DNA of 64,000 nucleotides, from positions 2,480,001 through 2,544,000 of the forward strand of contig NZ_CP126095.1 of assembly GCF_030123105.1 (NCBI RefSeq), in the 5' to 3' direction. The translations under genes were made by a program, and so were the position numbers. The stretch comes from Paenibacillus sp. G2S3 (GTDB lineage: Bacteria; Bacillota; Bacilli; Paenibacillales; Paenibacillaceae). The notes below the pieces were generated by a model. That model did not search any database. It was not told the origin of the DNA and was given only the letters and a program-made list of their open reading frames with translations. Shown here one piece after another: positions 19,496 to 37,530 of the stretch (its first letter is position 1; the number at the start of each line of letters is the position of its first letter).

Positions 19496-20434
19496 ATGCA
19501 GAACGAAACCATATTGGATACAAAAAAGATCCCTAAACGTCATTTGTCAAAAGCTGTCCGGGAAAACCTGGTAGCTTACAGCTTCATTGCGCCGAACTTT
19601 ATCGGATTTGCTGTGTTTACACTGGTACCCATGTTTTTCGCCTTTATCCTAGCTTTTGTGAAATGGGACGGGGCCAATCCAATGAAATATATCGGACTGG
19701 ACAATTTCACTCGGCTTATTAAAGATACAACATTTCATAAAGCATTATGGAATACCATTGTTTACACTATTGGCGTAGTACCGTTCACCATGATTGTTGC
19801 GCTGGCGCTGGCGATTTTGCTTAATCAGAAGATCATGGCGCGCAATTTCATGAGAACCGTATTCTTTTTCCCATATGTGGCATCCTTGGTAGCCGTTGCT
19901 GCCGTATGGAACTTTATCTTCAGCCCTACGATGGGGCCGATCAACAATATTTTGCATACCCTTACCGGTATCCCACTGGAGGATCTTCCCCGCTGGGCGG
20001 CGGATAAACACTGGGCGATGTTCACAGTAATACTGTTCACTGTGTGGAAAAACATGGGTTATTATATGGTCATTTACTTGGCAGGTCTACAGGGGATCAA
20101 CCCTGAGCTGTATGAGGCGGCTGAACTTGATGGTGCTAACGCCTGGAGAAGATTCCGCAATGTGACGGTCCCTCAGCTGGCGCCTACATCCTTCTTTGTA
20201 CTGATGATTCTAGTCATCAATTCGTTCAAAGTCTACGATATTTTTATCAACCTATTTGCCGGCGCTGACAACCAGTTGAACGATTCTACAAGGGTTATGG
20301 TTTATCAAATCTACAATACGGCGTTCCGTTCGCTTGATTACGGATATGCCAGCGCCATGGCCATTGTATTGTTTCTGCTGGTACTTGGCATCACCATCGT
20401 CCAGTTCCGCGGCGAGAAGAAATACGGACAATAG
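19496..20434 (+). CDS. Sugar ABC transporter permease (MalF/UgpA type)
   Basis: The 312-residue protein has six predicted membrane segments and the conserved ABC-permease EAA loop, here YEAAELDGANAWRRFRNVTV (about residues 204-223), which contacts the ATPase. The start at 19496 is preceded by GGAGGAG. It is the second gene of the transport operon and pairs with the MalG-type permease beginning 15 bases after its stop. No ATPase gene follows, so a shared MsmX-like ATPase is expected. Confidence 0.93.
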   Translation: MQNETILDTKKIPKRHLSKAVRENLVAYSFIAPNFIGFAVFTLVPMFFAFILAFVKWDGANPMKYIGLDNFTRLIKDTTFHKALWNTIVYTIGVVPFTMIVALALAILLNQKIMARNFMRTVFFFPYVASLVAVAAVWNFIFSPTMGPINNILHTLTGIPLEDLPRWAADKHWAMFTVILFTVWKNMGYYMVIYLAGLQGINPELYEAAELDGANAWRRFRNVTVPQLAPTSFFVLMILVINSFKVYDIFINLFAGADNQLNDSTRVMVYQIYNTAFRSLDYGYASAMAIVLFLLVLGITIVQFRGEKKYGQ

Positions 20435-20449
20435 GAGGATTCAAAAGAT

Positions 20450-21289
20450 ATGGTGGGTACAAATAAAGGAATTAGAATCGGCACGATGGTGCTAGTGTAT
20501 ATTTTGTTGTTTGCGACAGTGCTCTGTATGCTTGTTCCGTATATATGGATGTTGTCTTCTTCGCTCAAGCTGAACAAGGATGTGTTCTCATTCCCGATGC
20601 AATGGATTCCGGCGAATCCGCGCTGGGGAAATTTCGTGGATATCTGGACCCGTATTCCACTGGACCGATTCATTTATAACACGGCGAAATTATCAATTAT
20701 CGTAACGATTTTGCAGCTACTGACTTCAAGTTTTGCTGCGTACGCATTCTCCAAACTGCAATTCAGAGGGAAAAATGTTTTATTCCTTGGATATATCGCT
20801 ACGATCGCAATTCCTTGGCAGGCATATATGGTGCCGCAATTTATCTTGATGCGTTACATGGGACTGAACAATACCCATCTGGCAATCATTCTATTGCAGG
20901 CATTCTCGGCTTTCGGAGTATTTCTGATGCGCCAGTTCTATCAAGGAGTCCCAGATGAATTATGCGAGGCGGCCCGTATCGATGGCTTGAGCGAATATGG
21001 GATTTGGGCGAGAATCATGCTGCCACTATCCAAGCCGGCTTTGTCCACCTTGACGATTTTTACCTTTGTTGCCACTTGGAATGATTTCTTGGGGCCGATG
21101 ATTTATTTGACGGATACGAAACTGAAGACTATACAAATTGGACTACGAATGTTCATTTCGCAATATTCCGCCGAGTACGGTCTGATAATGGCTGCAAGTG
21201 TGGTTTCCATTATTCCGGTTGTGATTGTTTTCTTGGCACTTCAGAAGTACTTCGTTCAAGGCGTCGCAGCATCTGGTATTAAAGGCTAG
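20450..21289 (+). CDS. Sugar ABC transporter permease (MalG/UgpE type)
   Basis: The 279-residue protein has six predicted membrane segments and the EAA loop CEAARIDGLSEYGIWARIML (about residues 172-191). It ends in QKYFVQGVAASGIKG, the typical C-terminus of MalG-type carbohydrate permeases. AGGAGG lies 11 bases before the ATG. It is the last gene of the operon and is followed by a clear terminator. Confidence 0.93.
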   Translation: MVGTNKGIRIGTMVLVYILLFATVLCMLVPYIWMLSSSLKLNKDVFSFPMQWIPANPRWGNFVDIWTRIPLDRFIYNTAKLSIIVTILQLLTSSFAAYAFSKLQFRGKNVLFLGYIATIAIPWQAYMVPQFILMRYMGLNNTHLAIILLQAFSAFGVFLMRQFYQGVPDELCEAARIDGLSEYGIWARIMLPLSKPALSTLTIFTFVATWNDFLGPMIYLTDTKLKTIQIGLRMFISQYSAEYGLIMAASVVSIIPVVIVFLALQKYFVQGVAASGIKG

Positions 21290-22413: not shown

Positions 22414-23559
22414 ATGAATGGTACGAAACATCGTAAATATTGGCTGGATACGATGCTACAGATCGGGGACCCGGTACTTGATGCTTTGTCGCAGAGAAAA
22501 TTAAAGGAACGGCTGCCCACCGAGTTTCATAGTGACAGGAGCAAGTTTGCGCATTTGGAGGCATTCGCCAGGTTGGCCTGTGGAATGGCCCCATGGCTAG
22601 AGCTTGAAGGGTTGGAGGGTGAAGAAGAAGAGCTCAGGGCTCGTTATGCCATATTGATGCTGGAATGCATCGATGCCGCTGTCGATCCATCTTCACCTGA
22701 CTATATGGATTTTAAGTCCGAAGGCCAACCACTGGTCGATGCGGCATTCCTCGCCCATGCATTGGTGCGTGCACCGAAGCAGCTTGCCGGGCGGCTGAAT
22801 GAGCAGGTCAAAGGTAATTTAATAACAGCCTTGAAGCAAACGCGTCGGACCGCGCCCAGCGGCAGTAACTGGCTGCTGTTTAGTGCAATGGTAGAAGCAG
22901 CTTTATATATACTCGGCGATTCAGAATATGACCGGATGCGTGTTGGATATGCGATCCACATGTTCATGGATTGGTACAAAGGTGATGGCATATACGGGGA
23001 CGGAAAGGACTTTCACTGGGATTATTACAATAGCTTTGTCATTCAGCCGATGCTTGTGGATGTGGTTACACTCTTTGAACGGGACTTGGAGCAATACTCC
23101 GCATTGAGGCCATTGATTCTGGAGCGGGCACAAAGATATGCAACTGTTCTGGAACGGATGATTGCGCCGGACGGAACGTATCCGTTTATCGGGCGCTCTA
23201 TCGTTTACCGTTTTGGTTCGTTTCAGCTGCTATCACAAGCGGCGCTACAGCATTTTCTGGAGGATGCGCTATCACCCGCACAGGTACGCTGCGCCTTGAC
23301 CGCTGTAATCTCACGGACTATGGGATTTCCGGGGACGCTGGATGAAGCCGGGTGGCTACGTCCGGGGGTATATGGTTACCAGCCTGAGCTTGCAGAGAGC
23401 TATATTAATACGGGAAGTCTCTATTTATGCGCTTCAGTATTTCTTCCTCTAGGGCTACTTCCTGCAGATCCTTTCTGGGCAGGGACAGAATTGAAATGGA
23501 CAGCACAAAGAATCGCAGCCGGAGAGGATGTTATGAGAGATCATGCTTTGTGTAAATAG
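22414..23559 (+). CDS. DUF2264 family protein, short form
   Basis: The 381-residue protein is an alpha/alpha-barrel of the DUF2264 type, a family I associate with CAZy GH154 (beta-glucuronidase-like); that link is from memory. Visible family features are GSNWLLFSAMVEAAL, GDGIYGDGKDFHWDYYNSF and APDGTYPFIGRSIVYRF. It has no signal peptide. Compared with the second DUF2264 protein at 26603 it stops where the C-terminal beta domain would begin, with no remnant of that domain afterwards. AAAGGGTG lies eight bases before the ATG. It is first in an operon with heparinase-like, GH88 and full-length DUF2264 genes, implying cytoplasmic breakdown of uronate oligosaccharides. Confidence 0.8.
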   Translation: MNGTKHRKYWLDTMLQIGDPVLDALSQRKLKERLPTEFHSDRSKFAHLEAFARLACGMAPWLELEGLEGEEEELRARYAILMLECIDAAVDPSSPDYMDFKSEGQPLVDAAFLAHALVRAPKQLAGRLNEQVKGNLITALKQTRRTAPSGSNWLLFSAMVEAALYILGDSEYDRMRVGYAIHMFMDWYKGDGIYGDGKDFHWDYYNSFVIQPMLVDVVTLFERDLEQYSALRPLILERAQRYATVLERMIAPDGTYPFIGRSIVYRFGSFQLLSQAALQHFLEDALSPAQVRCALTAVISRTMGFPGTLDEAGWLRPGVYGYQPELAESYINTGSLYLCASVFLPLGLLPADPFWAGTELKWTAQRIAAGEDVMRDHALCK

Positions 23560-23596
23560 GGCGATCTGATTGCTCAAAAGGAGGGAGGAAGAGAGC

Positions 23597-25411
23597 ATGA
23601 ATAGACAGGAGCTTTTCGGAATTGTCCAACAAATGAAGTCAGCAAATCTGAGCTTGTATTATCCTAATGGTGATTCGGATGCTTTTTGGAAACTGGCCTC
23701 ATCATCCGAGACATTAAAGGAAGATATCAGCGAAATCCGCGCGGAGGCTCAAAGATTAGACAGCCAGCCTATATCGGAGCTGACGGATACGCTATTTTCA
23801 ATTTTTGCGCGCACGGGTTCGAGATTGGAATATGAACGGGTCTATTTCGAACGGAGAAGAAGGTTAAACACATATGTATTTATGACCTTGCTTGAGCCGG
23901 ATAATGTCAGACTTCTGGAGAACCTGGAAAATATACTATGGTCTATATGCGAAGAGTACACATGGTGCCTACCAGCCCATCTTCCTTCAGATCATACAGT
24001 GAATATCAACCAGTTTATTGATCTATTCTCCTCGGAGACTGCTTTTACACTTACTGAAATTTCTCTATTACTGGGGGAACGACTTCCACAGCTTCTTCGA
24101 TCCAGAATCAGACATGAAGTAGACCAGAGAATATTTCGACCTTTTATTGAATGTGGTCCTTATGAATGGGAGACTGCACGGCATAATTGGGCAGCAGTCT
24201 GCGCAGGTTCAATCGGGGCAGCCGCCCTGTTGATGTTGGAAGATCCTGCTGCGCTGACGGATATCCTGCTGAAGACAGAGCGCAGCATGAGTTACTATCT
24301 AGAAGGTTTCGGGGACGATGGGGCCTGCCTGGAAGGTCTGAGTTACTGGAACTACGGATTTGGCTATTTCACGTATTACAGCGATCTTCTCCGGGCAAGA
24401 AGCGAGGGAAGAGTAGACTGGTTTGCAACGGACAAAGTGCGAAGCATCGCTCAGTTCCAGCAGAAAAGCTTCATCGGTGGTAATTTTGTTGCCAATTTCT
24501 CTGACTCAGAGCCTCAAATTAACATACATATGGGCTTGTCCCATTATTTAGCTGATACCTTCCCAGAAGTCGAATGTCCTCCGCCTGCGCTTCGCGCTCC
24601 TTATGCTAAGGATCACTGCAGCCGCTGGGCTCCGGCTTTTCGAAATCTCATCTGGAGAAGGACCGGTGATGAGAAACAGGAACAGGATTGGGGAGCCGCC
24701 AGCTATTATCTTCCCGATGCGGCATGGCTCGTTTCGCGTTATAGATCGGAAGGGAGTTCATTCGGCTTTGCAGCCAAGGGAGGGCACAATGCTGAGCCTC
24801 ATAATCATAATGATCTGGGACAGTTCATTCTGCTAGGTGGAGGCGAAATCTATGTAGCTGATCTAGGCAGTGGAGAGTATACGGCTGATTACTTTGGGGC
24901 TGGCCGTTATCAATATGATTGCAATGGCTCACAAGGACATTCAGTTCCTATCATCGGCGGCCAGTATCAACTGGCTGGCAGGAAGCATAGTGCTACAATT
25001 CTGCACGCGTCGGCTGCGGTTGAAAAAGATGAACTGAAGCTGGAGCTGTCTCAGGCATACGAAGCGGAAGAGCTTCAATCCCTGATCCGCTCTATGGTTT
25101 GGTACAAGGGGCAGCATCCTCGCTTGGAGTTAGTTGACGAGTACCAGTATAACGGTAAGTCAGTGAGCTGGACAGAGCGGTTCGTTACCTGGCGTCGTCC
25201 GAAGATCCTTCGTTCTGGCGTCGTGCTGCTGCCCGGAACCGAAGTCGGCGGAGTTGAAGTGACCTATAATGCCCAGATCGTAGAACCGGAGATTACCGCA
25301 CGTGAGTACCAGGATCATTTTGGCAGGGATACGGTCTGGTATACGCTCGACTTTCATGCTCTTCAGCCCGGTTCTGAAGGGAAATTAGCATTCACCTTTC
25401 AATTTATATAA
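23597..25411 (+). CDS. Heparinase II/III-family polysaccharide lyase-like protein
   Basis: About 604 residues: an N-terminal alpha/alpha toroid (about 60-360) and a C-terminal beta domain of the heparinase II/III family (about 385-600), with the signature KGGHNAEPHNHNDLGQF. That motif carries the His residues used for metal binding or catalysis in the family. ARHNWAAVCAGSIGAAAL in the toroid resembles oligo-alginate and heparin lyases. No signal peptide is seen, so an oligosaccharide lyase working in the cytoplasm is likely. I start it at the ATG at 23597 with GGAGG eight bases upstream. Its product would have an unsaturated uronyl end, the substrate of the next gene's GH88 enzyme. Confidence 0.85.
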   Translation: MNRQELFGIVQQMKSANLSLYYPNGDSDAFWKLASSSETLKEDISEIRAEAQRLDSQPISELTDTLFSIFARTGSRLEYERVYFERRRRLNTYVFMTLLEPDNVRLLENLENILWSICEEYTWCLPAHLPSDHTVNINQFIDLFSSETAFTLTEISLLLGERLPQLLRSRIRHEVDQRIFRPFIECGPYEWETARHNWAAVCAGSIGAAALLMLEDPAALTDILLKTERSMSYYLEGFGDDGACLEGLSYWNYGFGYFTYYSDLLRARSEGRVDWFATDKVRSIAQFQQKSFIGGNFVANFSDSEPQINIHMGLSHYLADTFPEVECPPPALRAPYAKDHCSRWAPAFRNLIWRRTGDEKQEQDWGAASYYLPDAAWLVSRYRSEGSSFGFAAKGGHNAEPHNHNDLGQFILLGGGEIYVADLGSGEYTADYFGAGRYQYDCNGSQGHSVPIIGGQYQLAGRKHSATILHASAAVEKDELKLELSQAYEAEELQSLIRSMVWYKGQHPRLELVDEYQYNGKSVSWTERFVTWRRPKILRSGVVLLPGTEVGGVEVTYNAQIVEPEITAREYQDHFGRDTVWYTLDFHALQPGSEGKLAFTFQFI

Positions 25412-25457
25412 ATGATGAAAGAAATAGAGAACCATTCGAAGAAGGCGGTGTTTGAAA

Positions 25458-26594
25458 ATGAATATAACGGAAAAACAAACTTGGCTGGATGAAGCTTGGA
25501 GCAAGGCACTTGAAAAGACAAGATGTAACAGTCGGAAAATCGGCGCAGAATTTCCACATGCGAGTCAAGGCGGTAAATACTTGCTTGAAGCGCCGAACTG
25601 GTGGACAGCAGGGTTCTGGCCGGGAATACTCTGGCAGTTTTATTCTGAGAGTGGGGACGAAAGTCTTAAAATGATCGCGGAGCGCTGCGAAGAGAGACTC
25701 GACGAGGTACTGGACGGCTACGTTAAGCTGGATCACGATTTAGGCTTCATGTGGATTCTTACCAGTGTGGCGAATTACAAATTGACGGGTAGCGAGGAAT
25801 CGCGAATTCGAGCATTAAAGGCAGCCAACTACCTGGCAGCCCGCTTCAATCTGAAAGGATATTATATTCGGGCTTGGAATCCATGGAGTGAAGGGGAGGA
25901 CAATAGTGGAGTTGCTATTATCGACTGCTGCATGAACACCAGCCTGTTGTTCTGGGCTTCCGAGACAACGGGTGATCCCCGCTATCGTCATATCGCAGAG
26001 GCGCATATGGATACTGTGCTGGAGCATTTTATCCGACCGGACGGCTCCGTGTACCACATCGTTAAATTTAACCCGGAGACGGGTGGAGTGGTGGAGAAGC
26101 TTGGTGGGCAAGGTTTTGCGCCCGAATCGGCTTGGTCACGCGGCACGGCTTGGGCTATTTACGGCCTAGCGCTTGCCTTTCATCATACGGGAAAGCAGAG
26201 CTATCTGGATGCAGCTAAGCAGATAGCGCATTTCTTCTTGACCCGTCTGCCGGAGGATCACGTTCCGCATTGGGATTTCCGCGCTCCCGGTGAAGTCGGC
26301 GAGATTCGTGATAGCTCCGCTGGTTCCTGCGCGGCGAGTGGATTGCTGCTGTTAGCCGACCAGGTGGATGATTCGGAGTCCCATGTGTACAGGAACGGGG
26401 CTATAAGAATAGTGGAATCACTCTACAGGAATTATGGCAGTTGGGACAATACAGATGAGGAAGGGTTGCTGCTACATGGTACAAGTAACTACCCTGAGGG
26501 TCGGAATATAGATGTTCCGCTTATCTACGGTGATTTTTTCTATGTCGAAGCACTGGCTCGAATTAAAGCAGCAGGACCCTTCTATTGGGAGTAA
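25458..26594 (+). CDS. GH88 unsaturated glucuronyl hydrolase
   Basis: The 378-residue alpha/alpha-barrel protein has the two catalytic-site Asp regions of unsaturated glucuronyl hydrolases: KLDHDLGFMW (Asp94) and GVAIIDCCMN (Asp156). Conserved SAWSRGTAWAIYGLAL and RDSSAGSCAASGLL follow. GH88 enzymes hydrate the double bond of the 4,5-unsaturated uronic acid left by polysaccharide lyases and release it. It is cytoplasmic, with no signal peptide. The ATG at 25458 is preferred over a TTG two codons earlier, with AAGGCGG nine bases upstream. It lies 46 bases after the lyase-like gene and 8 before the next, in a tight operon. Confidence 0.92.
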   Translation: MNITEKQTWLDEAWSKALEKTRCNSRKIGAEFPHASQGGKYLLEAPNWWTAGFWPGILWQFYSESGDESLKMIAERCEERLDEVLDGYVKLDHDLGFMWILTSVANYKLTGSEESRIRALKAANYLAARFNLKGYYIRAWNPWSEGEDNSGVAIIDCCMNTSLLFWASETTGDPRYRHIAEAHMDTVLEHFIRPDGSVYHIVKFNPETGGVVEKLGGQGFAPESAWSRGTAWAIYGLALAFHHTGKQSYLDAAKQIAHFFLTRLPEDHVPHWDFRAPGEVGEIRDSSAGSCAASGLLLLADQVDDSESHVYRNGAIRIVESLYRNYGSWDNTDEEGLLLHGTSNYPEGRNIDVPLIYGDFFYVEALARIKAAGPFYWE

Positions 26595-26602
26595 GGGTGA
26601 TT

Positions 26603-28486
26603 ATGATGAACAAGGAGAAATCATTTTCTCGGATTGGCGATAATCCGCTGAAGACCCGTGAGGATCTGGTGATCGCCCTTGAGCAGCTTACAGATCCGCT
26701 TCGGCCGCACTACAGCAGAGGCGGCGCACGACTTAAAATCGGCAAAACAGGGGCGAGCTATTCGGCAGCAACTGCTGAAATGGAAGGGTTCTCTCGGGTG
26801 TTGTGGGGTTTGGTACCCCTGCTCATTGGTGGTGGAGACAGCGAACTCTGGGACATCGTGCTGGATGGCATTCGGCATGGCACCGATCCTTCTCATGAAG
26901 AATATTGGGGAGAGGTGAAGGATTACGACCAGCATTTGGTCGAAATGGCGGTCTTCGGCTTCGCATTGGCAGCCATTCCGGAACGGATTTGGTCGCCGCT
27001 TGCTCCGAAGGAGCAGGATCAATTATACCGTTGGCTGAATCAAATAAACGCCCATCCTTGCTATGACTGCAATTGGCTGTTCTTCAACGTTCTAGTTAAT
27101 ATCGGATTCCGCAAAATCGGTCGTCCCTACGACGCAGGGCAGCTAGAAAACAATTTGAAGCGCATGGATGATTTCTATTTGGGAGAGGGCTGGTACAGCG
27201 ACGGGATTAATGGCCACAGCGATTATTACGTACCTTTTGCTATTCATTACTATGCACTGCTGTACGCAAAGCTGATGGAGCAGAAAGACCCCGAACGTTC
27301 CCGTGTGTTCAAAGAACGGGCTCGATTGTTTGCTGCCGATTTCATCGGCTGGTTCGCACCCGACGGCTCCGCACTTCCTTATGGACGTAGCTTGACTTAC
27401 CGCTTTGCCCAGTCGGCATTTTGGAGCGTCATTGCCTATGCAGATGTTGAAGGATTTCCCGCTGGCGTGGTAAAAGGTCTGGTGCTGCGAAATCTGCGTT
27501 GGTGGTTCAGCCAGCCGATTGTTGACCCCGATGGCGTACTGACCATCGGGTATACTTACCCGAATCTGGTCATGGCGGAGAATTACAATGCTCCCGGTTC
27601 TCCGTACTGGGCGTTAAAGACTTTCCTGCCGCTGGCTCTAGGGGCGGATCATCCGTTCTGGAAGGAAGAGGAACTGCCGCTACCGGCCATTCCGGCTGTC
27701 ATGGTTCAGAAGCCTGCACATCTTGTCATCGTCCGCGAGCCCGCTTCCGGTCATGTGGCAGCCTTCAACAGCGGACATCTATACACGAATGAACATACCC
27801 ATACCTCGGCCAAATACGAAAAATTCGTGTATTCAACAGGCTTCGGCTTCAGCGTGCCCCGCTCCGAATGGGGGCTCTCCCAAGGAGCGTTCGACTCTAT
27901 GCTTGCGCTGAGCGAGCGCGGAGACAACTTATACCGGGTACGACGCCAGAATATAGAGTCTGAGATTATAGACAACGTCCTTCGTTCCGCCTGGAAACCG
28001 TGGGCCAATGTCGAGGTTCAGACTTTGGTTATCGCCGGACTCCCTTGGCATATTCGGATTCATCGAGTGGAAACTGGACGGTCGCTGGATACCGCGGAGG
28101 GTGGATTCGCACTTGGCCAAGAGAATGAAATGATATCGAAGATCGATGGGGCTGGTGCGATGGCCTCCACTTCTTGGGGAACCAGTGGAATCAAGGATTT
28201 GCTAGGTTATCGGAAAGGTGAGTTGGTCTGGCCGAACGCCAATACGAACCTGCTTCACCCTCGAACAGTGCTACCGATGCTGACGACCACCCTTGAGACG
28301 GGAATTCATTGGCTCGTTTCGGCCGTCTATGGTTGTCCTTCAAAGGGGGCTTTGGATATTCAGGCTGATCAAGCTGATGAGGTCCTCAAGCATTCACCTG
28401 AGCAAGATTTGAAAGTTAAGTTCAGCGAGGGAACGTTAACCATGGTCACTCTTTCTGGGAGAGAAATCGTCCTTAATTTACAATAA
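26603..28486 (+). CDS. DUF2264 family protein, full-length form
   Basis: The 627-residue protein has an N-terminal alpha/alpha-barrel (about 20-360; NWLLFNVLVNIGF, GEGWYSDGINGHSDYY and FAPDGSALPYGRSLTYRF) and a C-terminal beta domain (about 370-620; HTSAKYEKFVYSTGFGFSV). It belongs to DUF2264, which I link to GH154. No signal peptide. Two adjacent ATG codons, 26603 and 26606, follow an AAGGG. It is the last gene of the uronate operon, followed by a terminator. It shares the barrel with the product at 22414 but adds the beta domain. Confidence 0.83.
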   Translation: MMNKEKSFSRIGDNPLKTREDLVIALEQLTDPLRPHYSRGGARLKIGKTGASYSAATAEMEGFSRVLWGLVPLLIGGGDSELWDIVLDGIRHGTDPSHEEYWGEVKDYDQHLVEMAVFGFALAAIPERIWSPLAPKEQDQLYRWLNQINAHPCYDCNWLFFNVLVNIGFRKIGRPYDAGQLENNLKRMDDFYLGEGWYSDGINGHSDYYVPFAIHYYALLYAKLMEQKDPERSRVFKERARLFAADFIGWFAPDGSALPYGRSLTYRFAQSAFWSVIAYADVEGFPAGVVKGLVLRNLRWWFSQPIVDPDGVLTIGYTYPNLVMAENYNAPGSPYWALKTFLPLALGADHPFWKEEELPLPAIPAVMVQKPAHLVIVREPASGHVAAFNSGHLYTNEHTHTSAKYEKFVYSTGFGFSVPRSEWGLSQGAFDSMLALSERGDNLYRVRRQNIESEIIDNVLRSAWKPWANVEVQTLVIAGLPWHIRIHRVETGRSLDTAEGGFALGQENEMISKIDGAGAMASTSWGTSGIKDLLGYRKGELVWPNANTNLLHPRTVLPMLTTTLETGIHWLVSAVYGCPSKGALDIQADQADEVLKHSPEQDLKVKFSEGTLTMVTLSGREIVLNLQ

Positions 28487-30304: not shown

Positions 30305-31093
30305 TCACACCATCCCTTGTTTTGATTTCACACACTTTAGATTGTATGTGCGACCGTATACTTTTGCATATCTGACAATTCGGTCAATCATACGGGTGTC
30401 TTTCAGCTTAGTGAACGGGCATGGATCGGGTGCTGTATTCACTTCCAAAATCCATGACTTAAGACGTTGATCTAAGGCAATATCCACACCGATTTCCTGA
30501 AGGCCAGGATAGACAGTGCTAAGCTGCCTGGCAGACTTGACTCCAATTTGCTTCAGGGATCGGATGAATATTTTACAATTCTCTGCGCTTGTGTAGCCTT
30601 TCAATAATTCCTCCATCGGATAAATCGTTCCTCCTTGACTCCCGTTTGTAACTACTTTGCGAGGATGCGCCACGCGTCCTGCAACCCCTGTTGCTTCCCA
30701 CCCACCTTTAGAATTTCGCTGCACCATCACCCGGATATCGAAGGGGCGGCCATCGTACACCAACAGTCTGATCCCCTTTTGAACTAAATAGGACTTCCCT
30801 TGGGCTTCTCGTAAGAGAGCTTGATATGCAGTGTCGTAATTAGAGAATTTGTGTACGTGGGTACCGGACTGATAGCTGTATTGTGCACGAGCAAGTTCAA
30901 CCCGTATCACGCCCTGTCCTAAAGATCCGCAGCAAGGCTTAATGTACACCATCTTATATTTTTGTAGCATCTCATAGAGCGTGTTCTTATCCATTTTTCT
31001 TGTAAGCGGGACATGTTTGTTTAACTCTTGATTTCTAACCAGCACCCTCGTCTTCGTTAGCTTATTAGATATACGACTTATCTGCTTCATCAT
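30305..31093 (-). CDS. YheC/YheD-type ATP-grasp protein
   Basis: The 262-residue protein has the ATP-grasp pattern: KMVYIKPCCGSLGQGVIRV (nucleotide-binding Lys and glycine loop, about 48-66), QKGIRLLVYDGRPFDIRVMV, and the metal site SWILEVNTAPDPCPF near residue 225. This is the YheC/YheD family, many copies of which occur in Bacillus and Paenibacillus and some of which are spore-coat associated. ATP-grasp enzymes join a carboxylate to an amine or thiol. The start at 31093 (or the next ATG at 31090) follows GGAGGG. It diverges from the AMP-ligase/SbnA fusion across 164 bases, so a role in the same pathway is possible but unproven. Confidence 0.85.
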   Translation of the reverse strand: MMKQISRISNKLTKTRVLVRNQELNKHVPLTRKMDKNTLYEMLQKYKMVYIKPCCGSLGQGVIRVELARAQYSYQSGTHVHKFSNYDTAYQALLREAQGKSYLVQKGIRLLVYDGRPFDIRVMVQRNSKGGWEATGVAGRVAHPRKVVTNGSQGGTIYPMEELLKGYTSAENCKIFIRSLKQIGVKSARQLSTVYPGLQEIGVDIALDQRLKSWILEVNTAPDPCPFTKLKDTRMIDRIVRYAKVYGRTYNLKCVKSKQGMV

Positions 31094-31257
31094 TTTGTCC
31101 CTCCATCTCCAAATGTCCATAGGCTATATTACGAAAATGCCGTAGCTTTTGATTGGGCAACCATCGAATCGCAGAACACTATGAAAGAATTCTACATATG
31201 ATTATTGTAGGTATTCATCTACGGGCTGCAGCATGCGGTCAACAGGAGGCGGCCATC

Positions 31258-33471
31258 ATGCTGCTCGACAAAGACAAATTGCAGGATAAGTTGCTTGAAG
31301 TAATTGAGGTGTTTCCCTGGTATAAGGGGCTAATCAGCGGCGAAAGAACAAATTATAGCTTAGAGACGCTCCCGCTTATGACGTCCACAACGCTAGATAC
31401 CTATTATTATAATCAACCCATTGATCCTTCTTTGACCATATACAGGACATCGGGTACAAGCTCAGGCCGTCGAAAAGCCATACTTTACTCTAAGGAAGAC
31501 GATAAGCACTATATAGATATTAAAACGAAGCTGTACGGTGATCTTATTGCGGGAAGCGGATGTGTTAGCGCTTTGGCGGATATGGGTACTGGGCATGCGG
31601 CGAACACTGCGCTGTTTATTTTTGAGCGGTTAGGATTGGAACATCATTCAATTCCCTTCGAATTACCGATCGAGCAGCATATTGAACAGCTTCAAACCTT
31701 CAAGCCTGACTTACTCTACACAATGCCTTCCATCCTTGATCATATCGTACATGCTACTAGAGATCCGCGTGCTTTTGGAATCCGCAAGATTATTTTGGTT
31801 GGGGAAATCGCCTCATTAGGGTGGCAACGGAATATGGCCGGTCTGTTCGGTCTTGAACCGCACGACATCATTGATACGTATGGCTCCATTGAAATGGGCA
31901 CGATTGCTTATTATTCACATGATCTTGGCAGGTATATTTTTGCTGATGGGATTTTTGCGGAAGGGATCGGGACGCAGGAGATTGGCGAAGAACTAAGTCC
32001 GCTTAGTAATGACGAAAGTGTTCTTGTGCTTACCTCAACTGTGCGCAAAATGCTACCAGCTATTCGTTTCGTTACCTATGACGTTGTTAGGGATTTTAGG
32101 TCTGTGATGATAGATGGTGTGGAGAAGCAGAGCTTTAGTTCCATCGTCAAACGAGTGGGACGGGAGCTGAAGCATGGCGAGAAAATCAGCCTGTACGATA
32201 TCGAGCAGGTTGTATACCGTCATATAGAAGATGCGATCATCCGGGTCAAAGTATGGAAGAACGCGCTGACCGTTTACATCAAAAGTAAATCTGTGGATAA
32301 CACCATTGTCCCGAAGATCAAAGAGGAAATTAGGGAATGCATTCCGGAAATCGGCATGATGATTCGAAACCATCTGCTGGACGATATTGAGGTTATTATA
32401 GTAGCCAAAGACGTGCCGATGGACAGCGGAAAGGTTAAGAACAAAAAGCTATATTACCAGAAAGATAAAGATCGCGTAGAGAGGGACTTCACTGACGGTA
32501 TTTTGTCGACTATCGGAAATACGCCATTAATCAAGCTGAAGAGCTTGTTCTATAAAAGTGAGTTTGATGTCTATGCAAAAATGGAGCTGATGAACCCGGG
32601 GGGAAGCGCAAAAGACCGTCCCGCCCTGCGGATGATCCAAGAGGCATGGAAGGAAGGAACAATAGGTCCGGGAACCACCATTATTGAATCGAGCTCTGGA
32701 AATATGGCGATCAGCTTGGCCATGATTTGCAAGTATTTAGGAATGCGTTTTATCAGCGTTATCGATCCTAGAACCACAGAAACGAATCTACAAATTCTGA
32801 AGGCGTTGGATGCCAAAATCGATTATGTGGCCAATCCCGATCCCGTAACAGGTGAGTTTCTTCCTGCTAGGCTGAACCGTGTACAGCAGTTATTGGCGGA
32901 AATACCGGGCAGCTACTGGCCGAATCAGTATGCGAATGCAAATAATTATTTAGCCCATTACCATACGACAATGAAAGAAATCGTGACTGAACTTGAACGA
33001 GTGGATTATTTATTTTGCAGCGTTAGTACATGCGGCACCATTCGGGGCCTTGGGGAATACGTAAGAGATCACGGACTTCGGACCAAGATCGTGGCTGTCG
33101 ATGCAGAGGGAAGTGCGATTTTTGGAGGCAATCAGGCAATACGGCGGTTCCCAGGGCTGGGTGCTGGTATCGTACCACCCTTCTGCAGATCAGATCTAAT
33201 CGATCATATCGTGCATGTCTCGGATTCAGATATCGTAAAAGGTTGCCGGATGTTGGCGGAGAACGAATCCATTTTGGCAGGCGCATCTTCCGGTGGGATC
33301 ATTGCTGCAGTCAAGCAGATGGAGCCAGAATTGGCTCCGGGAGCTGTCTGCGCAATCATTCTGCATGATAAGGGAGAACGCTACCTCGATACCGTATACT
33401 CTGACTCATGGATTCAGAGCCAGTTTGGACGGGAGCTTTTGACTGAAAGCGGCGATCTTCCTGAGATTTAA
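31258..33471 (+). CDS. Fused AMP-ligase (PaaK-like) and SbnA-like 2,3-diaminopropionate synthase
   Basis: About 737 residues. Residues 1-405 form an adenylate-forming domain related to phenylacetate-CoA ligases: the P-loop-like YRTSGTSSGRRKAILY, DTYGSIEMG, RFVTYDVV, and a C-terminal A10-like PMDSGKVKNKK. Residues 410-737 match SbnA of staphyloferrin B synthesis: STIGNTPLIKL, the PLP lysine Lys452 in NPGGSAKDRPA, SSSGNMAISLAM, SVSTCGTIRGLG and AGASSGG. SbnA condenses O-phosphoserine and glutamate into N-(2-amino-2-carboxyethyl)-glutamate. The start at 31258 is set by AGGAGG eight bases upstream; longer in-frame extensions lack such a site. SbnB follows after 31 bases. The fusion suggests that an acid is activated for joining to Dap or a derivative, which is inference. 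Confidence 0.85.
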   Translation: MLLDKDKLQDKLLEVIEVFPWYKGLISGERTNYSLETLPLMTSTTLDTYYYNQPIDPSLTIYRTSGTSSGRRKAILYSKEDDKHYIDIKTKLYGDLIAGSGCVSALADMGTGHAANTALFIFERLGLEHHSIPFELPIEQHIEQLQTFKPDLLYTMPSILDHIVHATRDPRAFGIRKIILVGEIASLGWQRNMAGLFGLEPHDIIDTYGSIEMGTIAYYSHDLGRYIFADGIFAEGIGTQEIGEELSPLSNDESVLVLTSTVRKMLPAIRFVTYDVVRDFRSVMIDGVEKQSFSSIVKRVGRELKHGEKISLYDIEQVVYRHIEDAIIRVKVWKNALTVYIKSKSVDNTIVPKIKEEIRECIPEIGMMIRNHLLDDIEVIIVAKDVPMDSGKVKNKKLYYQKDKDRVERDFTDGILSTIGNTPLIKLKSLFYKSEFDVYAKMELMNPGGSAKDRPALRMIQEAWKEGTIGPGTTIIESSSGNMAISLAMICKYLGMRFISVIDPRTTETNLQILKALDAKIDYVANPDPVTGEFLPARLNRVQQLLAEIPGSYWPNQYANANNYLAHYHTTMKEIVTELERVDYLFCSVSTCGTIRGLGEYVRDHGLRTKIVAVDAEGSAIFGGNQAIRRFPGLGAGIVPPFCRSDLIDHIVHVSDSDIVKGCRMLAENESILAGASSGGIIAAVKQMEPELAPGAVCAIILHDKGERYLDTVYSDSWIQSQFGRELLTESGDLPEI

Positions 33472-33502: not shown

Positions 33503-34468
33503 ATGCTGTACTTAAATGATCGAGATATACGGGCAGTAGGTGTTGATTGGCCTGACCTTGTGGAGTCGGTAGAAACTGCAGTAGGTATCATCGATTCAGG
33601 TGATTACGCGCAGCCGGTAAAGCCTTATCTCAGGTATAAGAATCCTCAAAACCGGATTATTGCAATGCCCGCGTACGTAGGGGGAAAGGTGAATACTGCA
33701 GGGATCAAATGGATTTCTAGCTTTCCGAATAATATTTTGACTGGTCGTCCCCGTGCACATAGCATTATTGTATTGAATGACCACAGTACAGGGCAGCCTT
33801 CAGCCGTCCTGAACTCACCACTCCCCAGCATCGTAAGGACGGCTTCCATCAGCGGACTGATGATCCGTTACTATATGCAGGCGCGGTCGTTGGAACAGAT
33901 TCATCTCGGTATTATCGGCTGGGGCCCGATTGGCCAGTATCATTGTCAAATGGTTACGGCTCTGTATGGAGATCGAATCGAACGTATCCGTATTTACGAT
34001 ATCAAGGGAGTAGATTTGTCAGGATTCTCATCTTTATACAGTGATAGAATAGAAGTGGCAGAGACATGGGCGGATGTTTATCAGCATTCTAATATCTTCA
34101 TTACTTGTACCGTATCAGAACATCGGTATATCGATCTCCCCCCTGAAAAGGGTAGCCTTCTGCTGAATGTTTCACTTCGTGATTATAAGCCGAAGGCTTT
34201 AGCTTCGGTAAAAGCCATCATTGTCGACGATTGGGATGAAGTGTGCCGTGAGAATACGGACATTGAGCAGCTTCATCTGAAACAGGGGCTAACTCGTGAC
34301 GGCACTCGACGGATTACCGATGTCGTCTTTCGCCACAGCCTAGCTGAATTCAGCGAAGATGAACCGATCTTCTTCTGCCCGATGGGGATGGCCGTCTTCG
34401 ATATTGCTACAGCGGTGTATTATGTGAAGCAAGCGAGGGAAAAAGGGATAGGAACTGAGCTGGAGTAG
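33503..34468 (+). CDS. sbnB: SbnB-like N-(2-amino-2-carboxyethyl)-glutamate dehydrogenase
   Basis: The 321-residue protein belongs to the ornithine cyclodeaminase/mu-crystallin family. It has an N-terminal substrate part (KWISSFPNN, and SPLPSIVRTASISGL) and an NAD-binding Rossmann domain starting LGIIGWGPIGQYHC (about 134-147). Next to an SbnA domain it is best read as SbnB, which oxidises the SbnA product with NAD+ to release L-2,3-diaminopropionate and 2-oxoglutarate. An ideal AAGGAGGTGA precedes the ATG, and the gene is 31 bases after the fusion gene, forming a two-gene operon that ends at a terminator. If it is only an ornithine-cyclodeaminase-like enzyme, the pairing would be coincidental, which I consider unlikely. 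Confidence 0.83.
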   Translation: MLYLNDRDIRAVGVDWPDLVESVETAVGIIDSGDYAQPVKPYLRYKNPQNRIIAMPAYVGGKVNTAGIKWISSFPNNILTGRPRAHSIIVLNDHSTGQPSAVLNSPLPSIVRTASISGLMIRYYMQARSLEQIHLGIIGWGPIGQYHCQMVTALYGDRIERIRIYDIKGVDLSGFSSLYSDRIEVAETWADVYQHSNIFITCTVSEHRYIDLPPEKGSLLLNVSLRDYKPKALASVKAIIVDDWDEVCRENTDIEQLHLKQGLTRDGTRRITDVVFRHSLAEFSEDEPIFFCPMGMAVFDIATAVYYVKQAREKGIGTELE

Positions 34469-34540: not shown

Positions 34541-35422
34541 TTATGAATGATAGGTATCTTTAATAAATTGAATAAAATGTGCAGTGGCTGAGCTGAATAG
34601 CTTATTTTTTTTCCAAGCCAATACATGACTTGTAGTTCGTTCAGGTTCAAATGGAACAAAACAGGTACGATCACTTTCCCGGATAGAATATGAGCCACTC
34701 ACACAAATGGCATAGCCAAGCTTTTGTTCTACTAGAAGCATGGCGTTTGTCAAAAGATTATGTGAGGCAAAGATACGAAGGCTCCCATTCTCGACCCCAA
34801 GCCAGCTTGCGATCTCATTTTGTACAATCGTACGTCGAGGTAGAATTAGCGGTAAAGTAAGAATATCCTGAATGCCAATAGAAGTTTTCTGGGCGAGAAG
34901 ATCATCTCGTCGCATAAGAATGCCCCACTGTTCCTGATAAGGCAAGTGAATATAATCATATTTGGCGGCTTCAATGGGCTCTAATAATATACCGATGTCG
35001 ATATTTCCTCGGTCTAGCTTCTCTCGAATATCATCCCCATCAGCACTGTACAATTCATATTGTACCTTAGGATGCCGATTGGAGAATTCCTCTAATAACT
35101 CCGGCAACGCCCGGGATACCGTGGACTCTACACAGCCGATAGAGACTACGCCACCCACCAGATCCTTTTGTTCCGCCAGATCTCTTTCTGTTTTCTCCAA
35201 TAATGAAACAATCTCTTTTGCACGTTGCTGAAATAAAAGTCCACTGTCTGTTAATGTAATCTGCCTTTTTCCCCGAGTAAACAAGCTGGTCCCCAGCTCA
35301 TCTTCCAGATCCATAAGCTGCCGGCTTAAAGTTGGCTGGGTAATGTGGAGGATTTCCGCCGCATTGGTTATATTGCCTACCTTAGCAACTGTTAAAAAAT
35401 ATCTGAGAACACGAACATCCAC
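34541..35422 (-). CDS. LysR-family transcriptional regulator
   Basis: About 293 residues: an N-terminal LysR helix-turn-helix (NAAEILHITQPTLSRQLMD; about 18-36) and a type 2 periplasmic-binding effector domain from about 85 (VSIGCVESTVSRALPELLEE). The most natural N-terminus, DVRVLRYFLTVAK, follows a GTG at 35422 with GGAAGG 12 bases upstream. An in-frame ATG at 35449 gives nine extra residues, so the start is uncertain. It diverges from the MATE exporter gene and converges with the sbnA-fusion/sbnB operon. The exporter is the probable direct target. Confidence 0.87.
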   Translation of the reverse strand: MDVRVLRYFLTVAKVGNITNAAEILHITQPTLSRQLMDLEDELGTSLFTRGKRQITLTDSGLLFQQRAKEIVSLLEKTERDLAEQKDLVGGVVSIGCVESTVSRALPELLEEFSNRHPKVQYELYSADGDDIREKLDRGNIDIGILLEPIEAAKYDYIHLPYQEQWGILMRRDDLLAQKTSIGIQDILTLPLILPRRTIVQNEIASWLGVENGSLRIFASHNLLTNAMLLVEQKLGYAICVSGSYSIRESDRTCFVPFEPERTTSHVLAWKKNKLFSSATAHFIQFIKDTYHS

Positions 35423-35573
35423 TATTTTAAACATCCTTCCATAATACATCTGATAGATTGGACTTCTAAACCATACATATTAGGCATGATAAGCGATTTA
35501 ACATAGGTATTAGATATTTTTCACTTTTGAATTTACCATAGATTTAAAACCATTACAAAACGGGGTTAAACAA

Positions 35574-36938
35574 ATGAGTGAAATGCAAACGGCGCTTACG
35601 AAACCAAGATTATTTTCAGATAAGCAATTAATGAAATTATTCCTCCCCTTAATTGTAGAACAATTATTAGAATCTCTGATGGGCTTGGTCAATTCGATCA
35701 TGGTAGCTTCCGTCGGTGAATCAGCAGTATCGGGTGTATCCTTGGTAGAAATGGTTATGTTACTGCTGATCAGTTTATTTGCAGCGTTAGCAACCGGAGG
35801 GGCTGTGATTGTTGGTCAATATCTTGGAAAAAAACAGGAGAATCAGGCCAGAGAGGCAGCGAATCAACTCGTTTGGTTTGCCGGTGTTGCGGGACTTGTG
35901 ATTATGGTTTTGATTTATTTGTTGAAAGGATTTATTTTACACGGGTTATTTGGAACGATTACAGAAGAAGTGTATGGACACGCGAATACTTATTTATTAA
36001 TTATTGGGGCGTCTGTTCCTTTTCTGGCGCTTTATAATGCTGGTGCAGCGATATTCAGAACGATGGGGAACTCCAGATTGCCTATGAATATTATGTTGGT
36101 TATGAATCTTGTGAATATCGCAGGGAATGCTTTGTTGGTTTATGGGCTTGATATGGGAACTACAGGAATTGCTATACCAACCCTAATCTCCAGGATAGGT
36201 GCTGCTGTTTGTATTATTGTGCTTGTATCTAACCCAAAGAATCTCTTATCTCTGAAAAAGACCCTGCGGCATAAATTTGATGGCAGGATGATCAAGCAGA
36301 TTATGAGAATTGGTGTACCTTATGGACTGGAAAATGGAATGTTTTATATTGGACGGTTATTAATATTAAGTTTAGTCTCGACTTTTGGAACAGCGGCTAT
36401 TGCAGCGAATTCTGTAGGGAGTACGATTGCTTCCTTGCAGGCGTTACCCGGAATGGCCATCGGCTTAGGGATGTCTGTTGTGATTTCCAGATGTGTAGGT
36501 GCTGGAGAGTATGCTCAAGCTAAGTATTATACGAAAAAGATTATGGGTATAATCTATTTGGCACAGGTGGTTAGTTCCATTGTGAGTTTAGCTTTGTTTC
36601 CAAGTATACTGAGTATTTATCATTTTTCACCAGAAGCGGAGCTATGGGCAACAAGGATTGTATGGAGCCATGCGATCGTCATGATGTTGATCTGGCCTTT
36701 TGGGAATGCACTACCAACCGTTTTTCGTGCGGCCGGAGATGCGAAATTCCCTATGATCGTCAGCATGATTACGATGATGGGTTGTAGAATTCTGTTTGCT
36801 TATGTATTGGTTTATTGGTTTCATATGGATATGTTTGCAACGTGGATCGCAGTCTATTGTGATTGGTTGATTAAAGGGGCATTATTTATTTGGCGGTATA
36901 TTAGTGGGAAATGGACAAAGTTCCAGGCGATACAATAA
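35574..36938 (+). CDS. MATE-family multidrug/metabolite efflux transporter
   Basis: The 454-residue protein has 12 hydrophobic segments and the MATE repeat pattern: LPLIVEQLLESLMGLVNSIM in the first half, and a matching PYGLENGMFYIGRLLILSLV in the second, plus ATGGAVIVGQYLGKK. MATE proteins export cationic compounds using Na+ or H+ gradients. With the LysR gene divergent and the diaminopropionate genes just beyond, it may export the product of that pathway; a general drug pump is the alternative. It ends in a strong terminator. Confidence 0.92.
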   Translation: MSEMQTALTKPRLFSDKQLMKLFLPLIVEQLLESLMGLVNSIMVASVGESAVSGVSLVEMVMLLLISLFAALATGGAVIVGQYLGKKQENQAREAANQLVWFAGVAGLVIMVLIYLLKGFILHGLFGTITEEVYGHANTYLLIIGASVPFLALYNAGAAIFRTMGNSRLPMNIMLVMNLVNIAGNALLVYGLDMGTTGIAIPTLISRIGAAVCIIVLVSNPKNLLSLKKTLRHKFDGRMIKQIMRIGVPYGLENGMFYIGRLLILSLVSTFGTAAIAANSVGSTIASLQALPGMAIGLGMSVVISRCVGAGEYAQAKYYTKKIMGIIYLAQVVSSIVSLALFPSILSIYHFSPEAELWATRIVWSHAIVMMLIWPFGNALPTVFRAAGDAKFPMIVSMITMMGCRILFAYVLVYWFHMDMFATWIAVYCDWLIKGALFIWRYISGKWTKFQAIQ

Positions 36939-36990: not shown

Positions 36991-37530
36991 TTAAAGAGTA
37001 TAACTGAAGCCCAGTATAGTAAAACACTTGTCCCGATCTTCGGGTGCCATTCTGATTTCTATCAGATGCTCACAGCTAACCTCGTTTTGATATAGTATTA
37101 CCGGATTGCAATGTGTCCAGTTGTTCACGTGAGGATTAGCGGTGACTACAAGGCTGCCGTCTACGAAAATATCCGCCTTGCCGAACTCGCTGCTGCCAGA
37201 ATCCTTGTATACGAGGATGAGATTTCTGCTCGTTATTGTCAGCTTGAAGCTCTCTTCCCCTGATGCCCTTGAATGCATCCAATTATGAGGGAATTCCGGA
37301 GTTCCGTGAGGTTCGGCATCCATTTCTACCCGCTGCAAATCGGTATCGATCCCCGAAAATCCACCTACTGTGATCTTACCTGCGTCAAAATAGTTTTTTC
37401 GATCCAGCAGGAGGGTTCCAGCAAAATCATTCCCGATGACCGGGCGCTGATCTAATAAGATATCATCTTCAGCCATTGCTCCTTCCATATAACTAGAGCC
37501 GTACGAATACCGATTGGTATATTATGCAGA
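36991..37530 (-). pseudogene. Remnant of an SGNH/GDSL hydrolase C-terminal domain
   Basis: A 165-residue frame from the ATG at 37488 resembles the C-terminal region of large SGNH/GDSL hydrolases (ILVYKDSGSSEFGKADIFVD and NNWTHCNPVILYQ); I recall this similarity and did not compute it. The reading frame continues upstream of the ATG to about 37530 as NRYSYGSSYMEGAMAEDD, which looks like coding sequence cut off by a stop, and AAGGAG lies only two bases before the second ATG. The catalytic GDSL and SGNH blocks are absent. It lies last in a leftward run after TetR and the esterase-like gene. It could still make a small stand-alone beta-domain protein. Confidence 0.55.

What the first reader, a model, noticed from the sequence alone, without database searches (positions are those of the whole stretch)
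31258..33471. Fusion of an AMP-forming ligase with an SbnA-like diaminopropionate synthase
The frame runs unbroken from a PaaK-like adenylating domain (1-405) into a complete SbnA-like PLP domain (410-737) with Lys452 in GGSAKDRPA. SbnA enzymes (staphyloferrin B pathway) are normally single-domain, about 326 residues, and this PLP part has that length. One polypeptide could both activate an acid and make the Dap precursor. I know of no described enzyme with this architecture, though I cannot search.
Basis: partly seen in the sequence, partly recalled or inferred. Interest (0 to 1): 0.75.

Follow-up and report, generated by a model that had tools for sequence, protein, structure and literature searches.

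The report
Spore-timed diaminopropionate amide-making gene set
A soil bacterium carries one long enzyme that appears both to start making an unusual amino acid and to join an acid to it; together with a spore-coat-type ligase and a promoter like those used late in spore formation, it looks like a small pathway that puts an unknown amide into or onto spores.

Summary
The fused frame at 31258-33471 is real: one 737-residue ORF, unbroken in 17 of 100 genomes searched (own included). Its C-half is a bona fide SbnA (TIGR03945 cutoff met; Lys452 and O-phosphoserine residues kept). Its N-half is not a generic PaaK: its closest characterised relative found is DdaG, the fumarate-diaminopropionate amide ligase of dapdiamide synthesis (36% identity; 32 clade-diagnostic residues), though DdaG's curated cutoff is not met. 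The fusion is a single late stop-codon loss between genes that are adjacent but separate in other Paenibacillaceae. SbnB follows. More important: in 59 of 59 testable loci a YheC/D-type ATP-grasp gene (spore-coat family of unknown function) lies divergently upstream, and a sigma-K-like promoter precedes the ligase in 36 of 44 loci (about 1.6 expected; 18 of 22 after thinning relatives). The same site precedes dpaA in 29 of 30 genomes, other genes in 11 of 200. Best reading: a late-sporulation, mother-cell cassette making an N-acyl-diaminopropionate that the ATP-grasp ligase extends or attaches to something in the spore. Product, acyl donor and acceptor are inferred. Two genomes outside the order, perhaps a third, have ligase plus ATP-grasp without local SbnA/SbnB, so diaminopropionate may not be universal.

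The parts
31258..33471 (+). Fused ORF, 737 aa: DdaG-like ligase (aa 1-400) - linker - SbnA (aa 412-737)
31258..32457 (+). DdaG-like AMP-forming amide ligase domain (aa 1-400), ending in VKNKKLYY, the motif near which split ligases end
   Evidence: NF041596 274.9 bits, E 1.1e-81, below the 700 cutoff; 36% identity to Pantoea DdaG; junctions
32458..32490 (+). Variable linker in place of stop codon and intergenic gap (aa 401-411)
   Evidence: junction comparison; pLDDT under 50 at 390-395 and 397-405
32491..33468 (+). SbnA domain (aa 412-737), PLP lysine K452
33503..34468 (+). SbnB-type dehydrogenase (ACEGA to Dap), next gene
   Evidence: TIGR03944 312.4 bits, E 3e-93, narrowly under the 326.9 cutoff
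30305..31120 (-). YheC/D-type ATP-grasp ligase, divergent; true start probably the ATG at 31093 or 31090 rather than the ORF's first ATG at 31120
   Evidence: PF14398 209.6 bits; position of the start in relatives; divergent in 59 of 59 testable loci
31176..31202 (+). Sigma-K-like promoter of the fused gene: AC - 17 nt - CATATGAT
31151..31162 (+). GATTGGGCAACC, perfect match to the recalled GerE consensus RWWTRGGYNNYY; weakly conserved, suggestive only
31125..31133 (-). CGTAATATA, putative -10 (CRTANNNTA) of the ATP-grasp gene; no convincing -35 recognised

Best explanation
The locus is a compact amide-synthesis cassette switched on in the mother cell late in sporulation. The SbnA half condenses O-phospho-L-serine with glutamate to ACEGA; SbnB oxidises ACEGA to L-2,3-diaminopropionate (Dap); the DdaG-like half adenylates a small acid (fumarate or a similar dicarboxylate most likely) and passes it to an amine of Dap, giving N-acyl-Dap; the divergent YheC/D-type ATP-grasp ligase then joins this product to a further amino acid, peptide or spore-coat protein. 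The fusion ties the first and third steps into one polypeptide but arose by simple loss of the stop codon between adjacent genes, and relatives manage with separate genes. Shown here by sequence: family assignments, conserved catalytic residues, gene partnership, a single origin of the fusion in the sample, and the conserved sigma-K-like site. Inferred: all reactions, acyl donor, timing of expression, and final product.
For: SbnA above curated cutoff; Lys47, loop 72-78, Arg132, Gln151, Tyr152 and Ser185 of SbnA align to K452, 477-483, R538, Q557, Y558 and S590 (alignment; residue roles from passages of PMC12414870), all invariant in the eight fused proteins. Ligase: 60 columns invariant in 17 ligases including Pantoea DdaG, of which 32 occur in at most 20% of 27 generic PaaK-like proteins of Bacillota. 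Only 2 of 398 Bacillota genomes exceed 35 bits for the DdaG family, both of this genus and neither over its cutoff. ATP-grasp divergent in 59 of 59 testable loci, SbnB downstream in 42 of 51. Sigma-K-like site AC-N14-17-CATANNNT towards the ligase: 17 of 20 fused and 19 of 24 split loci, shuffled means 0.79 and 0.84, maximum 4 each; away from the ligase 0 of 20 and 4 of 24. Thinned to ligases under 70% identity: 18 of 22; under 80%: 23 of 29. 13 of the 15 ligase genes that passed the filters against 11 of 200 other genes in the same loci. Positive control dpaA 29 of 30, reverse strand 4 of 30; commonest spacing 17 nt in both sets. The 6 further ligase genomes checked carry SpoIVA. The dapdiamide plasmid of Pantoea combines SbnA, SbnB, ATP-grasp and DdaG.
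Against: The NF041596 (DdaG) cutoff of 700 bits is far from met, and SbnB misses its cutoff slightly, so acid and product may differ. G628 and G864 have ligase and ATP-grasp without SbnA/SbnB beside them, and G856 too as far as its contig reaches (it ends just past the ligase). G628 has no SbnA-like protein above 35% identity; G856 and G864 have an SbnA/SbnB pair elsewhere, in G864 beside what looks like NRPS genes. The sigma-K-like site towards the ligase is absent from 4 of 6 loci examined later (L230-L233; L230 is the Ammoniphilus locus already counted as a miss). The string is not enriched genome-wide (31 sites against 52 in the reversed control). The GerE box is perfect in only 4 of 20 and 3 of 24 loci. 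KHGEK, a conserved ligase motif, is modelled with low confidence (305-309). No expression data.
Confidence: 0.55

Rival explanations
1. The cassette makes a secreted dapdiamide- or FMDP-like antibiotic (a glucosamine-6-phosphate synthase inhibitor, recalled) or a metal chelator, exported by the MATE pump two genes downstream and governed by the LysR regulator.
For: DdaG kinship; LysR 34541-35449 and MATE 35574-36938 lie next to SbnB in this window.
Against: No MATE match in any of the 24 named loci or the 61 loci (L001-L034 are too short downstream to show it, most of L035-L055 are not); LysR matches there are weak and scattered, 3 of 24. DdaC, DdaD and DdaH counterparts are not among the seven neighbouring proteins scanned. 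Promoter evidence points to sporulation.
Confidence: 0.2
2. The ligase's amine is not Dap; ligase and ATP-grasp form the true unit with another substrate, and the SbnA/SbnB genes supply Dap to the ATP-grasp or were joined later for a related product.
For: Ligase plus ATP-grasp without neighbouring SbnA/SbnB in G628 and G864, probably G856; the DdaG cutoff is not met.
Against: Ligase and SbnA are neighbours or fused in the other Bacillales loci, Ammoniphilus excepted, where SbnA and SbnB share the ATP-grasp operon; the closest characterised enzyme found acylates Dap.
Confidence: 0.2
3. The fusion is a neutral accident with no channelling; only its two separate activities matter (compatible with the best explanation).
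For: Single stop loss, unconserved linker of variable length, and a split sister (L019) of the fused clade; SbnB acts between the two steps, so direct hand-over from SbnA to ligase is unlikely. The model leaves the domains unoriented, pTM 0.52.
Against: No re-split was seen among the 20 distinct fused rows, although sampling started from the fused query.
Confidence: 0.6
4. Assembly or annotation artefact.
For: None found.
Against: 17 of 100 genomes share the unbroken frame; strong RBS.
Confidence: 0.01

Closest known systems
Dapdiamide pathway of Pantoea (DdaA/B, DdaF, DdaG; plasmid pPag2 of P. vagans C9-1)
   Same: SbnA- and SbnB-type enzymes, a DdaG-clade amide ligase (36% identity over 94% of the ligase), and a separate ATP-grasp ligase in one locus
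   Different: No dioxygenase, NRPS or asparagine-synthase-like gene seen here; ATP-grasp is of the YheC/D family; ligase fused to SbnA; sigma-K-like promoter; spore-formers
SbnA/SbnB of staphyloferrin B (S. aureus; 5D84)
   Same: Dap synthesis from O-phosphoserine and glutamate; catalytic and specificity residues kept
   Different: SbnA carries a ligase domain at its N-terminus; none of the neighbouring proteins scanned is a siderophore synthetase
YheC/YheD of Bacillus subtilis (PF14398)
   Same: ATP-grasp family; spore-envelope location and mother-cell control reported (passages of PMC517825, and PMC7911427)
   Different: Next best paralogue in the own genome only 41% identical; tied to an amide ligase; B. 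subtilis yheC and yheD are in the sigma-E regulon with SpoIIID, here the ligase side looks sigma-K
RimK, LysX/ArgX, tubulin tyrosine ligase, D-Ala-D-Ala ligase
   Different: Identity 14-23% in the rows; substrates unknown here
E-64 and cystargolide pathways (amide-bond synthetase plus ATP-grasp; passages of PMC12568646)
   Same: Two stand-alone amide-forming enzymes in series without an NRPS
   Different: Other organisms and products, no spore link reported in the passages seen; sequences not compared here

Membership tests
SbnA (TIGR03945) | Score above curated cutoff | tested here: met
   413.5 bits against 349.95
SbnA (TIGR03945) | PLP lysine and O-phosphoserine residues (Lys47, Arg132, Tyr152, Ser185) | tested here: met
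   K452, R538, Y558, S590 by the alignment; roles from passages
SbnA (TIGR03945) | Makes ACEGA from O-phosphoserine and glutamate | not testable with these tools
   needs an enzyme assay
DdaG (NF041596) | Score above curated cutoff of 700 bits | tested here: not met
   274.9 bits; therefore not filed as DdaG, only as DdaG-like
DdaG (NF041596) | Residues separating DdaG from generic PaaK-like ligases | tested here: met
   32 such columns shared by all 17 ligases including Pantoea DdaG
DdaG (NF041596) | Fumarate and Dap as substrates | not testable with these tools
   needs an enzyme assay
Dapdiamide pathway | DdaC dioxygenase, DdaD NRPS and DdaH amidotransferase in the cluster | tested here: not met
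   not among the seven neighbouring proteins scanned; no fifth gene recurs in more than 7 of 23 relative loci
SbnB (TIGR03944) | Score above curated cutoff | tested here: not met
   312.4 against 326.9 bits, full-length; called SbnB-type
YheC/D ATP-grasp (PF14398) | Score above gathering cutoff and intact ATP-grasp residues | tested here: met
   209.6 against 26.8 bits; K60, D212, E225, N227 invariant in 24 rows; their catalytic roles are recalled
Sigma-K regulon | Conserved promoter of sigma-K type before the gene | tested here: met
   36 of 44 loci, 18 of 22 after thinning, controls; 4 of 6 later loci lack it. Consensus letters partly recalled; dpaA as a sigma-K gene of B. subtilis is recalled
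Sigma-K regulon | Sigma-K-dependent expression | not testable with these tools
   needs transcript data

The most novel reading that the evidence does not exclude
Spores of many Paenibacillaceae carry a Dap-derived amide made late in the mother cell, and YheC/D-type ATP-grasp proteins, an unexplained spore-coat family, are the ligases that build it or attach it to coat proteins: a dapdiamide-like chemistry turned into spore-envelope modification.
Probability: 0.3. Interest if true: 0.82.

Novelty: new variant of a known kind. Interest (0 to 1): 0.6.

Why it matters
It offers a concrete biochemical hypothesis for the YheC/D family: the function of YheD in B. subtilis is stated to be unknown in PMC7911427 (passages). 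It also places an antibiotic-type amide ligase in the sporulation programme. Four small genes with a predicted substrate set make the idea testable in one assay series. The fusion supplies a convenient bifunctional enzyme, though by itself it is an ordinary stop-codon loss.

Tried and rejected
MATE pump and LysR regulator as parts of the system: rejected, not conserved. Genome-wide search for the promoter string as proof of a regulon: no power, 31 sites against 52 in the reversed control. A GerE box as a conserved element: weak. A fifth conserved neighbour: none in more than 7 of 23 loci. DdaG-like ligase or YheC/D gene beside SbnA outside Paenibacillaceae: none over 60 bits in the 56 other SbnA loci, within the flanks held. 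Structural match of the ligase half: the fold searches with the fusion model listed only PLP enzymes, so that half was judged by sequence alone. Lys/Arg/Tyr-rich N-terminal extensions of the ATP-grasp ORF in L042 and L051 as coat-like tails: 2 loci only, starts uncertain; left as a curiosity.

Rows dropped before counts: seven loci (L036-L039, L044 and L064, repeats or near-copies of others, and L043 with an uncertain start) and intergenics outside 80-350 nt (L051); L031 and L040 lack the upstream stretch. In one search seven loci (L036-L039 and L044 as repeats, L086 with Ns, L047 with frameshifts in several genes) and L048 (SbnA on the other strand). In one search, 59 of 61 loci were testable upstream and 51 downstream; at least six are repeats of one genome (L036-L039, L044, L230). 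The 27 generic ligases are the longest frames of loci that matched NF041596 at 34.5 bits or less.

Literature: the nine answered searches listed no paper on this fusion or cassette; PMC3179956 lists a Paenibacillus JDR-2 sbnA/sbnB pair as product unknown (passages). Only passages found by term were read in PMC517825, PMC7911427, PMC12568646, PMC3179956, PMC12414870, PMC9485241 and PMC9414260; the other listed papers were seen as titles and abstract starts. The DdaG/DdaF biochemistry (Hollenhorst 2009) was seen only as a reference entry and through PMC12568646. The library holds open-licence papers only.

Full report
Observation. The frame at 31258-33471 is open, 737 aa, with AGGAGG eight bases before its ATG. 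NCBIfam places residues 415-719 in TIGR03945 (SbnA, 413.5 bits, cutoff 349.95) and 18-383 nearest to NF041596 (DdaG, 274.9 bits, cutoff 700). Pfam gives PALP for the C-half and a sub-threshold AMP-binding hit for the N-half. The next gene, 33503-34468, is SbnB-type (312.4 bits, cutoff 326.9).

The fusion is real and derived. With the whole protein as query, 17 of 100 genomes including the own have one unbroken frame; 22 others in the same list have ligase and SbnA as separate neighbours (the tool's list is cut at the weak end). Among 55 locus rows examined one by one, 25 are fused (some genomes appear twice). At the junction, many split ligases end in VKNKKIYY or similar and a stop, with SbnA starting close by or overlapping; fused proteins keep VKNKKLYY (or a close variant) and continue through a linker not conserved in length or sequence. 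On a 47-row tree the fused state needs one change, the sister being L019, still split by a stop in the same frame (support 85; quick search, some long branches). The predicted structure shows two well-folded domains, low confidence at the linker (390-405) and no fixed mutual orientation (pLDDT 86, pTM 0.52).

The ligase half. Against plasmid records it hits four: Paenibacillus cellulosilyticus and three Pantoea DdaG (best 36% identity over 94%). Pantoea vagans pPag2 carries sbnA, sbnB, an NRPS, an ATP-grasp gene, ddaG and asnB in a row. In an alignment of 17 ligases including that DdaG, motifs TSGT, DxGTGHA, TMP and KHGEK are kept; of 60 invariant columns, 32 occur in at most 20% of 27 generic PaaK-like proteins from Bacillota. 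In 398 Bacillota genomes only two, both of this genus, exceed 35 bits for NF041596; with a profile of the ligases themselves, 11 of 398 genomes of the class have it (E up to 1e-30).

Promoter. Between the divergent genes, the ligase side carries AC-N14-17-CATANNNT in 17 of 20 fused and 19 of 24 split loci; dinucleotide shuffles give means of 0.79 and 0.84 and never more than 4; the opposite direction gives 0 of 20 and 4 of 24. These loci are related, so I thinned them: 18 of 22 with ligases under 70% identity, 23 of 29 under 80%. Upstream of other genes in the same loci the site occurs in 11 of 200, against 13 of the 15 ligase genes that passed the same filters. Upstream of dpaA, recalled as a sigma-K gene in B. 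subtilis, it occurs in 29 of 30 related genomes and on the reverse strand in 4 of 30. The commonest spacing is 17 nt in both sets, 24 of 44 and 28 of 30. In this window the site is 31176-31202. PMC517825 gives a five-nucleotide -35 and a ten-nucleotide -10 separated by 14-16 nt (passages); the exact letters I used are recalled. The ATP-grasp side has CRTANNNTA in 18 of 20 and 17 of 24 loci (means 1.9 and 2.0) but no -35 that I recognise. Against: the site is absent from 4 of 6 later loci (one of them the Ammoniphilus locus again), the string is not enriched genome-wide (31 against 52 reversed), and the GerE box is rarely perfect (4 of 20 and 3 of 24).

Limits. G628 and G864 have ligase and ATP-grasp without SbnA/SbnB next to them; G856 shows none either, but its contig ends just past the ligase. 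G628 has no SbnA-like protein above 35% identity; G856 and G864 have an SbnA/SbnB pair elsewhere, in G864 beside genes that look like NRPS by eye. Two fused genomes, G059 and G774, lack SbnB next door but have one elsewhere. So Dap is the likeliest amine in this window and not proven for the whole clade. The six further ligase genomes checked have SpoIVA, as expected for a spore function, though spore formation is common in these groups anyway.

Mechanism. Best reading: phosphoserine and glutamate to ACEGA (SbnA half), ACEGA to Dap (SbnB), acid plus Dap to N-acyl-Dap (DdaG-like half), then ligation by the ATP-grasp protein, in the mother cell at the sigma-K stage. The reactions follow from the families; the acid, the ATP-grasp acceptor and the site of the product are inference. 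Since SbnB acts between SbnA and the ligase, direct channelling inside the fused protein is unlikely.

Verdict. Observation confirmed; interpretation partly supported. The fusion alone is modest. The recurrent pairing of a DdaG-like ligase, usually with Dap genes, with a spore-coat-type ATP-grasp gene, most often under a sigma-K-like promoter, turned up in none of my nine answered literature searches. New variant of a known kind; interest 0.6.

Noticed in passing
window 36991-37488 (-): A 165-aa ORF matches only residues 464-624 of a 624-aa ORF in the close relative L035 (88% identity); it looks like a truncated remnant beside the non-conserved LysR-MATE pair.
   Followed up: partly
L042:8825-9838 and L051:8682-9827: The ATP-grasp ORF has an N-terminal extension rich in Lys/Arg/Tyr (in L042 a tandem RKI repeat), reminiscent of coat proteins; true starts uncertain.
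   Followed up: partly
G000:C1:2072919-2078885: The own genome holds five YheC/D-like match places in a row on one strand, away from the window.
   Followed up: no
L055:13275-14015 and L233:6514-7263: A second YheC/D-like ATP-grasp gene lies on the far side of the cassette in two distant genomes.
   Followed up: no
window 22414-28486: Four consecutive ORFs whose sequences look to me like polysaccharide-degrading enzymes (heparinase-like and unsaturated glucuronyl hydrolase-like, from memory, no search made), behind two permease-like ORFs at 19496-21289.
   Followed up: no
G054:C6:99009-99989: An SbnA-like stretch (40% identity) lies inside a 1377-aa open frame, another possible fusion of SbnA.
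   Followed up: no
window 31125-31133 (-): A conserved CRTANNNTA element before the ATP-grasp gene has no recognised -35; which sigma factor reads it is unexplained.
   Followed up: partly
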